A stretch of DNA of 64,000 nucleotides from Erinaceus europaeus (Eukaryota; Chordata; Mammalia; Eulipotyphla; Erinaceidae). The stretch is from the NCBI RefSeq assembly GCF_950295315.1, contig NC_080166.1:99081141-99145140 (forward strand). The letters are read 5' to 3'. The position numbers and the translations under genes are program-made. The notes under the pieces were generated by a model, which did no database searches, was not told the origin of the DNA, and saw nothing but the letters and a program-made list of their open reading frames with translations. Shown one piece after another: positions 9,876 through 57,907 of this stretch. Position 1 is the stretch's first letter, and each line of letters begins with the position of its first letter.

Positions 9876-11136
9876 GAAAACACCTAGAATTGCCAAAACC
9901 ATCTTGAGGAAAAGAAACAAAAATGGAGGTATCACACTCCCAGACCTTAAACTATATTATAAAGCCATCATAATCAAAACAGCATGGTACTGGAACAAAA
10001 ATAGGCACACAGACCAGTGGAACAGAATTGAAAGCCCAGAAATAAATTCCCACACCTATGGAATCTAATCTTTGATAAGGGGGCCCAAAGGATTAAATGG
10101 AAAAAGGAGGCTCTCTTCAATAAATGGTGCTGGGAAAACTGGGTTGAAACATGCAGAAGAATGAAATTGAACCACTTTATCTCACCAGAAACAAAAATCA
10201 ACTCCAAATGGATCAAAGACCTAGAAACAATCAAATACTTAGAGGAAAACATTGGTAAAACACTTTCCCAACTACACCTCAAGGACATCTTTGATGAATC
10301 AAACCCAATTGCAAGGAAGACCAAAGCAGGAACAAACCAATGGGACTACATCAAATTGAAAAGCTTCTGCACATCCAAAGAAACTATTAAACAAACAGAG
10401 AGACCCCCTCACAGAATGGGAGAAGATCTTCACATGCCAGACATCAGACAAGAAACTAATCACCAAAATATATAAAGAGCTCAGCAAACTTAGCACCAAA
10501 AAAGCAAATGACCCCATCCAAAAATGGGCAGAGGATATGAACAAAACATTCACTACAGAGGAGATCCAAAAGGCTAACAAACATATGAAAAACTGCTCTA
10601 GGTCACTGATTGTCAGAGAAATGCAAATTAAGACAACACTAAGATACCACCTCACTCCTGTAAGAATGGCATACATCAAAAAGGACAGCAGCAACAAATG
10701 CTGGAGAGGATGTGGGGACAGAGGAAACCTTTTACATTGCTGGTGGGAATGTAAATTGGTACAGCCTCTTTGGAGAGCAGTCTGGAAAACTCTCAGAAGG
10801 CTAGACATGGACCTTCCATATGATCCAGTAATTCCTCTCCTGGGGATATACCCCAAGGACTCCATAACACCCAACCAAAAAGAGGTGTGTACTATGTTCA
10901 TAGCAGCACAATTCATAATAGCTAAAACCTGGAAGCAACCCAGGTGCCCAACAACAGATGAGTGGCTGAGAAAGCTGTGGTATATATACACAATGGAATA
11001 CTATGCAGCTATCAAGAACAATGAACCCACCTTCTCTGACCCATCTTGGACAGAGCTAGAAGGAATTATGTTAAGTGAGTTAAGTCAGAAAGATAAAGAT
11101 GAGTATGGGATGATCCCACTCATCAACAGAAGTTGA
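9876..11136 (+). pseudogene. L1 ORF2 C-terminal part, frameshifted
   Basis: ORF2 of L1 encodes an endonuclease/reverse transcriptase; only the region after the RT core is present. The frame opening (residues [14 protein letters not shown]) breaks near 10064, continues in another frame to about 10400, then returns to the first frame and runs to the stop at 11134-11136. The two indels cancel. The C-terminal zinc-knuckle pattern C-x3-C-x7-H-x4-C is intact at about 10699-10752, followed by LLGIYPKD and [14 protein letters not shown], both strong L1 signatures. With no endonuclease or RT core it cannot be active. The 230-codon antisense frame at 10299-10991 is a shadow. Confidence 0.95.
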
Positions 11137-12486
11137 CTAAGAAGATATGAAAGGGAAACTAAAAGCAGGACCTGATCAAATTGTAAGTAGGGCACCAAAG
11201 TAAAAACCCAGTGGTGAGGGGTAGACATGCAGCTTCCTGGGCCAGTGGGGGGTGGGAGTGGGTGGGAGGGATGGGTCACAGTCTTTTGGTGGTGGGAATG
11301 GTGTTTACGTACACTCCTAGCAAAATGTAGACATAAATCAGTAGTTAATTAATATGAGAGGGGAAAAATCAATTGTATGTCTCAAAGTTTTTCAAAACAC
11401 AAACTGAATCCTTTTAATATATAGGCTGTGTACTTGATATGCGGACTCTCTCAAAAGCCTAGACCAAGTAGATTAGAAGCATCCAATAACACAACTATAT
11501 ACAAGATACTGGGTACTGTACAGCAAACCATAATAAAAGGACTTTTCAAAGTTAACCCAATTAACAAATAATGTGATGATAACATTAACTATCAATTGTC
11601 TTTTTGAACCCTAAGACAGCAGGAACCTCACATCTCCACTATAGAGCCCCTACTTCCCCCAGTCCTGGAACCCTTGGATAGGGCCCACTTTCTCGTATGC
11701 GTCTCCCAATCCAAACCAAATAATATTGCATCCGCCAATCACAACCTAACCAACGCAACGATTGCCACCTCAACATGCTTCACCTCAGACTGTGTCCAGA
11801 GACTTCACATGTGGAATGACAACCCTTCAGCTTCATTACTCGGGTGAGACCTTTCCTTTTATAGTACACTCTAATTTCATCTCAGGTGGTTCACTTTCTA
11901 ACAAAGTCCCATAACCTAGATATACACCAGTTTCTGTGAGAGAGAGCTTATGTGCACACGTATCCATTAACTACTGCAAAATATATACCTGAAAGCAGAA
12001 GTACACTAGAGTTTGCAGTGAGTACCTCCCTAACACTTCCTCTCCACTATTCCAAGCTTTGGGTCCATGATTGCTCAACAATTTGTTTGGCTTCGTATGT
12101 TAACTCTCTTTTCAATCACCAGGTTCCAGATGCCACCAGGATGCTGGCCAGGCTTCCCTGGATTGAAAACCCCACCAATGTGTCCTGGAGCTCAGCTTCC
12201 CCAGAGACACACCCTACTAGGGAAAGAGAGAGGCAGACTGGGAGTATGGACTGACCAGTCAATGTCCATGTTCAGCGGGGAAGCAATTACAGAAGCCAGA
12301 CCTTCTACCTTCTGCAACCCTCAATGACCCTGGGTCCATGTTCCCAGAGAGATAGAGAATGGGAAAGCTATCATGGGAGGGGGTGGGTTATGGAGATTGG
12401 GTGGTGGGAATTGTGTGGAGTTGTACCCCTCCTACCCTATGGTTTTGTTAATTAATCCTTTCTTAAATAAAAAAAAAAATTTTTTT
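9876..12486 (+). mobile_element. 5'-truncated L1 (2.6 kb) with 15-bp TSD
   Basis: Perfect TSD 'aagatattatttctc' at 9861-9875 and 12487-12501 defines the insertion. Inside are the last third of ORF2 (to 11136), then about 1.35 kb of 3' UTR ending 'taatcctttcttaaataaa' plus an A run. The UTR contains two 'ggtggtgggaat' blocks, at about 11290 and 12400. It lacks about 0.8 kb that other copies carry between 'gtttgcagtgag' and 'cactattcc', so it is the short-UTR form also seen at 26318-26990. Landed just after a SINE. Confidence 0.97.
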
Positions 12487-16274: not shown

Positions 16275-17075
16275 TGTATTCCTTCTTTTTTAATTTGGAG
16301 GTTAATGGTTTGCAATACAGTTGTTGGCACATGGGTACAATTTCCCATCTCATCATGATAGGTGTCTGCAAAATACCCTCACCCACACACAGTCTTTTCC
16401 ACCATCATGTATCAGGACCTGAAAGCTCCCACCACACACACCCTTCTCCCTGCCCTCCTCCCCAGAGTCCTTTGCCTTGGTAATACTCCCAACAAGTCCA
16501 AGTTTTACTTTGTGATTCCCCTTTCTGTTCTTGTTTCTTGAGTTCTACCCATGAATGAGATCAGCCCATATTCATCCTTCTTTTTCTGACTTATTTCTCT
16601 TAACATGATTCCTTTCAGGCTCTATCCAAGATGAGGTAAAGAAGGTGACAGACCTTTGGTGGTGGGAATGGTGTTATACAGTCCTATTAACATACAGCAT
16701 CACAAATATTTAAAATTAAACTAAAAAATTAAAATAAAAAGGTGAAGTCACCATATCTTGATATTCATATTATATATACATATTCGATATACATATTCAT
16801 ATATATCACAACTTTCTTAGCCACTCATCTGTTATTTGACACCTAGGTTGCTTCCAAATTTGGGCTATTACACATAGTGCTGCTATGTACATAGGTGTAC
16901 ACAGATCTTTTGGGATGGGTGTGTTTGGTTCTTTAATATATGTCCCCAGGAGAGGAATTATAGGGTCATAAGAGGTCCATTTCTAGCCTTTTGAGAGTTG
17001 TCCAGACTGCTTTCCACATGAGTTGGACTAATTTAAATTCCCACCTGCATTGTTAATGGGTACTGTCTTGTTAAT
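16275..17075 (-). mobile_element. Antisense L1: 3' UTR and end of ORF2
   Basis: From left: complement of the L1 3' terminus ('ggttaatggtttgcaataca'), 3' UTR, then complement of the ORF2 end ('catccttctttttctgactt', 'cacctaggttgcttccaaat', 'ccaggagaggaattataggg'). It has the older terminus '...cattaacctccaaa'. Interrupted by a sense L1 tip at 16649-16738. Confidence 0.9.
16649..16738 (+). mobile_element. 90-bp L1 3' tip nested in antisense L1
   Basis: 'ggtggtgggaatggtgttat' and an A/T-rich tail lie between two copies of 'aaggtga' (16642-16648 and 16739-16745); removing one TSD copy and the insert restores the L1 sequence around it. The block equals the first of the two 'ggtggtgggaat' blocks of the 9.9-kb L1, so here that block was the actual 3' terminus. 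Confidence 0.8.
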
Positions 17076-21929: not shown

Positions 21930-22420
21930 CCTTTTTATATATTTTAATTGGGGGACTAATGGTTTACAGTAAGTATAGTTGTTGGTACATGACTAAAATC
22001 TCTGTTTTCTGCAAAACACTGTTACCCTCCAGCTTAACACTCTGATCAACCATTACACTAGGACCTGAAAGTCAACCCTCTGACTCCACCCTAGTGTCTT
22101 TACTTTGGTGTCACACATCATACCAAGTCCAAATTCTACTTTGTGTTTCCCCTTCACATCTAATTTCTCAACTTCTGTACATGAGTGAGAACATCCCATA
22201 TTCATTCTTCTTTTTCTGGCTTATCTTACTTAACATCAAGCGCCATCCAAGATGAGGTAAAAAGGCAAATTCATTGTTCTTAATAGCTGAGTAGTATTCA
22301 ATTGTGCTTATATAGCAAAATTTCTTAGTCACTCATATGTAGTTGGATACCTAAGTTGCTTCCAGGTTTTGGCTATTAAAAACTGTGATGCTCATGTATC
22401 CATAAGTTATGAGAAAATAT
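21930..22420 (-). mobile_element. Antisense L1: 3' UTR and end of ORF2
   Basis: Parallels 16275-17075: 'gggggactaatggtttacag' (3' terminus complement), then 'cattcttctttttctggctt', 'gctgagtagtattcaattgt' and 'cctaagttgcttccaggttt' (ORF2 end complement). It is immediately followed by a sense L1 UTR. Confidence 0.88.
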
Positions 22421-23689: not shown

Positions 23690-24215
23690 TTCTTTTTTTT
23701 TTCTAAGTTCCTATATATTAGATCTCTAGATTCAACACATGAATGAAACAATTTGGTAGTTGTTTTTCATCTTTTTGCTTATTTCACCTAGCATAATCAC
23801 TTCTGGTTCCATCCATTTTGCCTCAAAATATACAATATCATCTTTTTTGATCTCAGAGTAGTATTCCATGGATTATATATTTCATAATTTCTTTATAGCC
23901 AGACATTTGTTGATGGGCATTTAGGACACTTCCACTCTTTGGTTACATATCTCCAGGAGAGGATTTCAGGGTCATAGAGTAGGTCCATTTCTAGCCTTCT
24001 CAAAGTTCTGCAGACTGCTCACCACAGGGTTTGAACCAATTTACATTCCCTCCAGCAGTGCAGGAGGGTTCTCTTACCTGTACAATCTCCACGATTTAGC
24101 ATTTGTTGTTACTATCCTTTCTGCTGTGTAACATCCCCACAGGAACAAAGTAGTATTTCATTGTTGTCTTAATTTGAATGTTTCTTTAGCACATGAACAT
24201 TTAAAGTAATTTTAA
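23690..24215 (-). mobile_element. Antisense L1 ORF2 remnant
   Basis: 'agtagtattccatggattat', 'ccaggagaggatttcagggt', 'gcagactgctcaccacaggg' and 'ccaatttacattccctccag' are the complement of ORF2 downstream of the RT, including the zinc-knuckle stretch. Stops throughout. The UTR is absent, so the 3' part was lost or displaced. Confidence 0.87.
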
Positions 24216-45785: not shown

Positions 45786-45900
45786 TTGTGTTTGTAGCTA
45801 ATAAATACTGTCTTGATATCTAAACTTTATCTATTAAGATGGTAGACTATATCTTGGTGTTCTTAGTATAAAATAAAATTACAATTAAAGAGAAAGATAA

Positions 45901-46207
45901 GTGGTGACACACCAGCTTAAATGCACACAGTACGAAACACAAGGACCCACACAAGGATCCCAATATGAGCCCCCAGCTTCCCACCTGCAGGGGGGAGTAG
46001 CTTTACAAGTGGTAAAGCAAATATGCAGGTGTCTATATTTCCCTCTTCATCTCTATCATCCCCTCCCCTTTCAATTTCTCTCTGTCATATCCAAAATAAA
46101 TAAACAAACAAATAAATAAATAAATAATGACCACCAGAAGCAGTGGATTCATAGTGCAGGCAAGGAGCCCCAGTGATAAGCCTGGAGGCAAAAAGAAAAA
46201 AAGGGAA
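45901..46207 (+). mobile_element. SINE-A with 3' module, 10-bp TSD
   Basis: 'gtggtgacacaccagcttaa', 'cacctgcaggggggagtagc', AAT-rich middle, 3' module 'accagaagcagtggattcat' ... 'gataagcctggaggcaaaaa'. TSD 'agaaagataa' at 45891-45900 and 46208-46217. It ends 17 bp before the TSD of the composite L1. Confidence 0.9.
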
Positions 46208-46891
46208 AGAAAGATAATTAAACTAAAATTACAACTAAAGGGGAACTTCTGGAGGCAAGGCTACAGAGTAGCAGCAGCTGCATCTCTCTCCTCTCCTGGT
46301 TAACCAAGAATAACAACTTGAGAACACAAGACAACAGTCAGATTCCTTTGGGAACCCACCAAGTCATGGGTGAGTGCAAACACGTGTGGCTCATAGACAA
46401 AGAGTGGCCTAAGGAGAGATCCCTGGAGCTGAAAGTCCATACCTACTCAGGAGCGACTGGTAACAGTCCCACATCTTGCCAGTTAAGGCACCACCTCTGT
46501 TCTTAGTTTTATTAACAAATAAACTGCTGAGGGGAGGAGAGGATCCCCTATCCCCTAAAGTTCACAAAATGCAACTGTGAGTCTCCAGTTGCTACTGTCT
46601 TTGGAGGCTGGAGCAGCTTCCGGGAGGCCCTGTGCTGACATAAGGGGAAGAGAACTGATCAGGCAACTTAGGAGAAGAAATATACTCCCAGTGGTCTGGA
46701 AGTGGGGCTGTATAGTGGCAGCTTTTCCATATTGTTCTCCTAATGAATTTGGGGACACGTTGAATAATTGCCTCAGAACCCACGAAGTACAAATGGATTT
46801 GTTTAGAAACTCATAGGGCCAAGGACTGCAGCCCTTCTTGGCTCTGACTGTTGTCAGAGAAGCTGAATTGGGCCCAGGGCTTTGGACCCTT

Positions 46892-46937
46892 GGGGCATGA
46901 GACTCTCTTTGCATAACCACTGTGCTATCTCTCCACC
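46892..46937 (-). repeat. SINE-C scrap inside composite L1
   Basis: 'ggggcatgagactctctttg' and 'cataaccactgtgctatctc' are the complement of the SINE-C head region, lying between the 5'-UTR-like part and ORF2. Confidence 0.8.
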
Positions 46938-47232
46938 ACCTTCTTTTATCTCTACCAAGTTAGGAGTAATTAAACTCAATCAAGAGGACTTAACAATTGT
47001 CAACATCTATACACCCATGGAAAGGCCACTGAAATACATCAAACATCTACTGAAAGAGATAATATATACAGCAATATATTAACAGCAACACAATTAATAG
47101 TAGGGGATTTCAACACCCCTTGGATGTTAGACCAGAAACCATCAAATACTTAGAGGAAAATACTGGCAGAACTCTTTTACATCTAAATTTTAAAGGCATC
47201 ATCAGTGAAACAAATTTAATTACAAAAAAAAA
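46938..47232 (+). pseudogene. L1 ORF2 with large internal deletion
   Basis: 46938-47125 encodes the end of the endonuclease domain (residues LTIVNIYTP, and GDFNTP at about 47103-47120, a conserved endonuclease motif whose D and N are catalytic in the family). At about 47125-47130 the text jumps to the late ORF2 segment ETIKYLEEN, which in the 9.9-kb L1 lies at about 10227. More than 2 kb of RT-coding sequence is skipped. 'agacc' or similar occurs on both sides of the joint, so a few bases of microhomology are possible. Frameshifts and stops are present. Confidence 0.85.
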
Positions 47233-47396
47233 AAAGTTGAACAATAAACACAAAACAGCACTTGGACTGGGTCTGGTTTACTGCACCAAAGTAAACCAGT
47301 CTGGGGTGGGGGTGGGGGGTCATGTCCCAGAATATGATGGCAATGGAAGACCTAGAGGGGGGCTAAATTTTATGTGGAAAACTAAAAAGTGTGAAC

Positions 47397-47463
47397 AGGG
47401 GTAGATGGCATAGTGGTTATGCAAAGAGACTCTTATTCCTGAGGTTCCAAAGTATCAGGTTCA
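47397..47463 (+). repeat. Second SINE-C scrap inside composite L1
   Basis: 'ggcatagtggttatgcaaag' to 'agtatcaggttca' is the SINE-C head through its B-box, in the orientation opposite to the scrap at 46892-46937. It ends abruptly at the ORF2 end. Confidence 0.85.
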
Positions 47464-47827
47464 TGGGAAATTCACCTTCTTTACTCCATCTTGGATGGAG
47501 CTCAAAGATATCATGTTAAGTGAGATAAGTCAGAAACAAAAGGATGAATATGGGATGACCTCACTCATAGACAGAAGTTGAAAAACTAGATCAGAATGGA
47601 AACCTCTAAACAAAACTTGGACTGGAGTTGGTATTGCACCAAAGTAAAAGACTCTGGAAGGGGGTGGGATTCAGGTCCAGAAACATGATGGCAGAGGATG
47701 ACCTAGTGGGGGCTGTATTGTTATGTGAAAAACTGGGAAATGTTATGCATGTACAGACTATTGTATTTTACTGTTGACTTTAAACCATTAATCCCCAGTA
47801 CAGAAATTTTTAAAAATTACAACTAAA

Positions 47828-57755: not shown

Positions 57756-57860
57756 ATTATATGAAAAACTGGGATATGTTGTGCATGTACAAACTACTGT
57801 ATTTACTGTCAAATGTAAAACATTAATTCCCCAGTAAAGAAATTTTTAAAACAAATAAAT
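57756..57860 (+). mobile_element. 105-bp L1 3' tip with 12-bp TSD
   Basis: 'gaaaaactgggatatgttgt' to 'cattaattccccagtaaaga' equals the terminus of the composite L1 at about 47718-47805. TSD 'aaaataaattac' at 57744-57755 and 57861-57872. Severe 5' truncation. Confidence 0.87.
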
Positions 57861-57907
57861 AAAATAAATTACGGAAGAAAAAAGCAAAATAATTATTATT
57901 TTTTTCT

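What the first reader, a model, noticed from the sequence alone, without database searches (positions are those of the whole stretch)
46225..47827. Mosaic L1 derivative inserted as a single unit
Seen: one perfect 15-bp TSD encloses an L1 5'-UTR-like start, an endonuclease piece, a late-ORF2 piece, a 3'-UTR module, the very end of ORF2 and a second 3'-UTR module, with ORF1 and the RT core gone. Known: ordinary L1s are truncated from the 5' end, so keeping the 5' end while losing the middle is unusual and points to a spliced or recombined RNA, or to a non-autonomous L1-derived family (HAL1 is a precedent for such partial L1 families). Inference: this may be one copy of an undescribed hedgehog non-autonomous family, or a one-off template-switch product. 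The TSD means the mosaic most likely predates insertion.
Basis: partly seen in the sequence, partly recalled or inferred. Interest (0 to 1): 0.75.

Follow-up and report, generated by a model that had tools for sequence, protein, structure and literature searches.

The report
Half-L1 repeat family with borrowed tail
The patchwork element is one copy of a repeated family of jumping DNA, built from pieces of an L1 element plus a scrap of a short repeat, while the gap that removes its first gene appears to belong to this copy alone.

Summary
In detail: a 1,573-bp L1 mosaic (46240-47812) lies between perfect 15-bp duplications. It is mostly a family, not a one-off. In the window's own genome 39 other scored loci align in one block across the joints from 47120 to 47463 at 81-86% identity. 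An exact word over the first joint occurs 109 times, over the family form of the last joint 165 times; reversed controls 0. A simpler form with an ordinary tail also exists (19 other loci reach its end), suggesting two-step assembly. The loss of ORF1 is separate: its joint at 46975/46976 was found only here. The joints tested (47119/47120 and 46975/46976) show no GT-AG splice sites. Best reading: a HAL1-like element copied in trans by L1, whose 3' end was replaced by a SINE/L1 chimera. No published description was found in seven searches; Repbase and Dfam could not be searched.

The parts
46225..46239 (.). 5' target-site duplication, AAAATTACAACTAAA
46240..46975 (+). L1 5'UTR with its 5' end
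   Evidence: alignment with L038, L040-L042 and full-length family copies
46975..46976 (+). joint found only in this copy (5'UTR to endonuclease, about 1.57 kb absent)
46976..47119 (+). part of the ORF2 endonuclease region
   Evidence: 85% to L042
47119..47120 (+). family joint J2 (endonuclease to late ORF2), 1-bp overlap, no GT-AG
47120..47229 (+). late ORF2 piece
   Evidence: 84% to L042
47230..47392 (+). A-rich join J3 and first 3'UTR copy, lacking its end
47393..47397 (+). GAACA at joint J4, not matched in the L1s compared
47398..47462 (+). head of a tRNA-type SINE
47462..47463 (+). family joint J5 (SINE head to ORF2 end)
47463..47581 (+). end of ORF2
   Evidence: translation; alignment
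47582..47812 (+). second 3'UTR copy and A-rich end
47813..47827 (.). 3' target-site duplication

Best explanation
This is a copy, with an internal deletion of its own, of a non-autonomous L1-derived retrotransposon family of about 3.1 kb. Step 1 (inferred from a surviving simpler form): an L1 lost most of ORF2 in two jumps, leaving 5'UTR + ORF1 region + endonuclease start + 111 bp of late ORF2 + 3'UTR. Step 2 (inferred): the end of that 3'UTR was replaced by a chimera of a SINE head joined to an L1 3' end, either by template switching during target-primed reverse transcription or by a SINE/L1 chimera landing in the 3'UTR and supplying the new poly(A) end. The composite kept an L1 5'UTR (presumed promoter) and an L1 3' end (presumed recognition by the L1 machinery), so L1 proteins could copy it in trans. 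The window copy lacks a further 1.57 kb, through a template jump at its insertion or a later deletion; these cannot be told apart here. Shown: shared joints, several independent flanking repeats, the simple form, the parental L1 arrangement. Inferred: the cause of each joint, the order of steps, and trans-mobilisation.
For: 39 other loci in one block across J2-J5. 109 and 165 exact joint words, controls 0. Different flanking repeats in the window copy, L009, L010 and L014. Five fetched copies nearly unbroken over about 3.1 kb. L1 parents L038, L040-L042 with the pieces in ordinary order. Simple form L035 and 19 other loci matching through its 3'UTR end, against 20 that stop at the J4 breakpoint, none between. 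ORF1 frameshift shared by 4 of 8 copies, endonuclease frameshift shared by 6 of 8 rows, and shared variants spread evenly over codon positions 26/25/30, as expected if the family did not need its own proteins.
Against: 20 of 24 copies gave no flanking repeat that stands out. The simple form's 3'UTR resembles present L1s more than the composite's first 3'UTR does, so a recombinant origin of L035 is possible. Only the best 40 candidates were scored in each DNA search. No Rfam tRNA match was reported in three other loci that carry SINE copies, and the window head is below the Rfam cut-off. Over 336 codons no stop is shared by 40% of eight copies, so an intact ORF1 in the founder is possible.
Confidence: 0.85

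Rival explanations
1. A unique template-switch or recombination product of this locus.
For: The joint at 46975/46976 was found only here.
Against: Joints J2-J5 recur at many loci.
Confidence: 0.03
2. An ordinary L1 that was rearranged by deletions after insertion.
For: The window's own gap could be such a deletion; L025, L028, L027 and L015 also have gaps of their own.
Against: The other joints and the SINE head sit at the same positions in independent loci.
Confidence: 0.02
3. Retrocopy of spliced L1 RNA (SpIRE-like).
For: The 5' end is kept while the middle is missing, as in 5'UTR-spliced L1 copies (PMC5860796, abstract).
Against: The skipped stretch at J2 begins ACTCTC and ends AAGGAC; at the window's own joint the donor side shows TAAAA, not GT. 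J3-J5 involve an A-run and a SINE and were not tested as introns.
Confidence: 0.04
4. The simple form is a recombinant of the composite with a younger L1, not its ancestor.
For: L035's 3'UTR is closer to L042-type L1s than the composite's first 3'UTR is.
Against: 19 other loci show the same complete end at 78-86% identity to L035, more diverse than the 82-84% of the composites in that list.
Confidence: 0.2

Closest known systems
HAL1 (half-L1) families
   Same: Non-autonomous L1 derivatives that keep the 5' part with ORF1 and lack most of ORF2; said to have arisen several times in mammals (PMC5753468 and PMC5322556, passages).
   Different: Here half of the copies tested share an ORF1 frameshift, and the 3' end is a SINE-head/L1-tail chimera behind a second 3'UTR.
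L1/small-RNA chimeric insertions (tRNA/L1, U6/L1)
   Same: An RNA fragment joined directly to an L1 3' part; tRNA/L1 chimeras are catalogued in human (PMC13174262, abstract and passages).
   Different: Those are reported as single insertions, the tRNA part mostly antisense and half-length; here a sense head lies inside a multiplying family.
SpIREs (spliced integrated L1 copies)
   Same: 5' end kept, internal part missing, TSDs (PMC5860796, abstract).
   Different: No GT-AG at the two joints checked; joints are in ORF2 and the 3'UTR as well.
SVA and LAVA composites
   Same: Composite non-autonomous elements moved by L1 in trans (PMC7353768, abstract start in the listing).
   Different: Other parts (VNTR, Alu); here the 5'UTR and 3' end are L1.

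Membership tests
HAL1 | Derived from L1, retains the ORF1 region, lacks the RT part of ORF2 | tested here: met
   Full-length copies against L038, L040-L042; Transposase_22 hit in L016. The window copy itself lacks ORF1.
HAL1 | Encodes ORF1p | tested here: inconclusive
   No stop shared by 40% of 8 copies over 336 codons, but a 4-nt deletion shared by 4 of 8 and no third-position excess.
HAL1 | Poly(A) tail and TSDs | tested here: met
   A-rich ends; clear flanking repeats in 4 of 24 copies.
HAL1 | Groups with named HAL1 families | not tested
   Repbase and Dfam are not available here.
SpIRE | Joints at splice donor and acceptor sites | tested here: not met
   Joints 47119/47120 and 46975/46976.
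L1/small-RNA chimera | Small-RNA part joined directly to an L1 3' part | tested here: met
   J5 alignment and SINE copies.
L1/small-RNA chimera | Chimera framed by its own TSD at both ends | not tested
   No free-standing SINE-head/ORF2-end copy was sought.
Autonomous L1 | Intact ORF1 and ORF2 with endonuclease and RT | tested here: not met
   The RT part of ORF2 is absent from the full-length family copies compared.

The most novel reading that the evidence does not exclude
An undescribed mammalian non-autonomous L1 lineage that replaced its own 3' end with a tRNA-SINE-head/L1-tail chimera and then multiplied to hundreds or more copies, in part without an intact ORF1, leaving the simple form beside it as a surviving intermediate.
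Probability: 0.4. Interest if true: 0.55.

Novelty: new variant of a known kind. Interest (0 to 1): 0.4.

Why it matters
L1 chimeras with small RNAs are mostly known as single insertions. Here such a chimera seems to have become the 3' end of a multiplying family, and a simpler form without it survives, so the order of events is open to test. It would show that an L1 5'UTR plus an L1 3' end can be enough to spread in trans, and lets one ask whether the new 3' end helped.

Tried and rejected
Splicing as the source of the joints: rejected at J2 and at the window's own joint; J3-J5 were not tested as introns. Antisense SINE insertion in the 5'UTR: rejected, since its core is in the L1s too. A family-specific 0.2-kb insert in the 5'UTR: rejected, L038 has it and L040-L042 lack it. 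The 46975/46976 joint as a subfamily marker: not supported (the other pattern hit, C94:58407869, was not examined).

Copy number: 6 of 29 and 10 of 29 sequences in hand hold the exact J2 and J5 words, which with 109 and 165 matches suggests about 500; a capture-recapture count on contigs C1-C88 (68 J2, 90 J5, 5 shared) gives about 1,050 there and about 1,700 scaled. Both are rough: the sample was picked by similarity, and some J2 loci may be the simple form. Three other loci with SINE copies gave no Rfam tRNA match. An L014 endonuclease fragment and an L042 ORF1 fragment gave no L1 family in Pfam. Bao and Jurka 2010 on HAL1 is not held; I know it only as cited in PMC5753468 and PMC5322556. Input errors.

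Full report
What is there. The mosaic at 46240-47812 lies between perfect 15-bp duplications at 46225-46239 and 47813-47827; 0 of 40 shuffled flanks did as well. The genome holding the window (G000, 2.72 Gb, unnamed) could be searched.

Family or one-off. The whole mosaic as query gave the window itself plus 39 loci matching its 3' unit, each in one block spanning at least query 885-1571 (window 47109-47795), which holds the joints J2 to J5, at 81-86% identity (40 of 23,531 candidates scored, so a lower bound). The exact 26-mer at 47114-47139 over J2 occurs 109 times, the window included. An exact 27-mer over the family form of J5 occurs 165 times; the window carries a variant of it. Reversed controls gave 0 for both. 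Flanking repeats differ: window 15/15, L010 14/14, L014 13/14, and L009 34/35 (35 nt outside the alignable start), each reached by 0 of 40 shuffles. Of the other 20 copies tested, eight gave a repeat that 2 to 12 of 40 shuffles reached, and twelve gave none.

Full-length structure. Five fetched copies (L011, L012, L014, L016, L018) run nearly unbroken over about 3.1 kb. Against L1s from the same genome (L038, L040, L041, L042), element 1-2435 of L016 corresponds to 5'UTR, ORF1 and the start of the endonuclease; 2435-2545 to late ORF2; 2545-2712 to the 3'UTR; about 2717-2783 to SINE copies and not to L1; 2783-3145 to the ORF2 end plus 3'UTR. Pfam supports ORF1 in an L016 fragment (Transposase_22, E 1e-9) and endonuclease and RT in L042; the L014 endonuclease fragment and the L042 ORF1 fragment gave no L1 family.

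Joints. J2 joins TTCAACACCCC to TTGGATGTTAG with a 1-bp overlap; the skipped L1 stretch begins ACTCTC and ends AAGGAC, so it is no GT-AG intron. J3 is an A-rich join into the 3'UTR. J4 joins AATGT to GAACAGGGGTAGAT; the SINE part starts near the 5' end of free SINE copies, but that end was judged by eye from upstream sequence, not from TSDs. J5 joins the SINE right after GGTTC to ATGGTGAATTCACC of ORF2. The window head scores 22.2 bits against the Rfam tRNA model from model position 1, below the gathering score of 29; three other loci with SINE copies gave no tRNA match.

A simpler relative. L035 has J2 and J3, then a complete ordinary 3'UTR and A-rich end, without SINE or second tail. A search with its 393-bp 3' end scored 39 other loci: 19 match to position 372-389 and 20 stop at 305-313, the J4 breakpoint, none between (40 of 8,036 candidates scored). 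The 19 are 78-86% identical to L035. The two loci in hand that came from the J2 word list (L050, L051) are composite. The simplest order is simple form first, composite later. L035's 3'UTR resembles present L1s more than the composite's first 3'UTR does, so recombination is not excluded.

Age and branches. Among 28 copies, mean pairwise differences over about 800 bp are 12-16%, 14% for the window copy. A 9-nt stretch of the second 3'UTR is missing from 25 of 28 and present in the window copy, L025 and L036, as in L1, so the window copy belongs to a minority branch that kept the L1 state.

Coding state. Over 336 codons no stop is shared by 40% or more of eight copies in the combined-majority frame. 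But a 4-nt ORF1 deletion is shared by four of eight, a 1-nt endonuclease deletion by six of eight rows (L027 keeps the base, L039 is gapped there), and variants shared by some copies fall evenly on codon positions (26/25/30); fixed differences from L1 were 9/7/12, 20 of 28 non-synonymous. In L011, L012 and L014 the endonuclease frame ends about ten codons past J2. The family most likely moved in trans on L1 proteins; that is an inference, and an intact ORF1 in the founder is not excluded.

The window's own joint. Full-length copies hold about 1.57 kb between 5'UTR and endonuclease that this copy lacks. Of 39 other loci scored with a query across this joint, none reaches more than 3 nt past it (40 of 3207 candidates scored). 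A degenerate pattern found the window and one other place, with one hit in the control. L025, L028, L027 and L015 have gaps of their own at other points. Whether the window's gap arose at insertion or later is open; the TSD does not decide it.

Place among known things. HAL1 families are non-autonomous L1 derivatives said to have arisen several times (PMC5753468 and PMC5322556, passages). Human L1 chimeras with small RNAs are catalogued in PMC13174262 (abstract and passages), whose text has no 'hedgehog' or 'HAL1'. A study of Atelerix albiventris sorts LINE-1 and tRNA-SINE consensus sequences into subfamilies; its main text has no 'HAL1' or 'non-autonomous' (PMC12026660, passages). The hedgehog row of a table in PMC3183009 names no HAL1, but lists only some families (passages). 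Paper searches listed no description; Repbase and Dfam were not available.

Verdict. A real, multicopy, HAL1-like composite with an unusual 3' end, of which the window copy is an internally deleted member: a new variant of a known kind, of moderate interest.

Noticed in passing
L033 3480-3720 (reverse complement of the fetched locus): A different L1 deletion: the endonuclease region runs past the J2 point and is then joined to the ORF2 end.
   Followed up: no
45875-45889: AAAATTACAATTAAA, 14 of 15 bases like the TSD, lies upstream of a SINE-like stretch (about 45890-46110) next to the element; it may be chance.
   Followed up: no
9876-11225, 16457-17053, 22086-22391, 23947-24185, 57757-57863: Other L1 pieces in the window, 74-84% to L042.
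   Followed up: no
L025, L028, L027, L015: Internal gaps of their own in other family copies, at different points.
   Followed up: partly
L040, L041, L042 5'UTR against L038: About 0.2 kb kept by L038 and the family is missing from these L1s, a hint at the source lineage.
   Followed up: no
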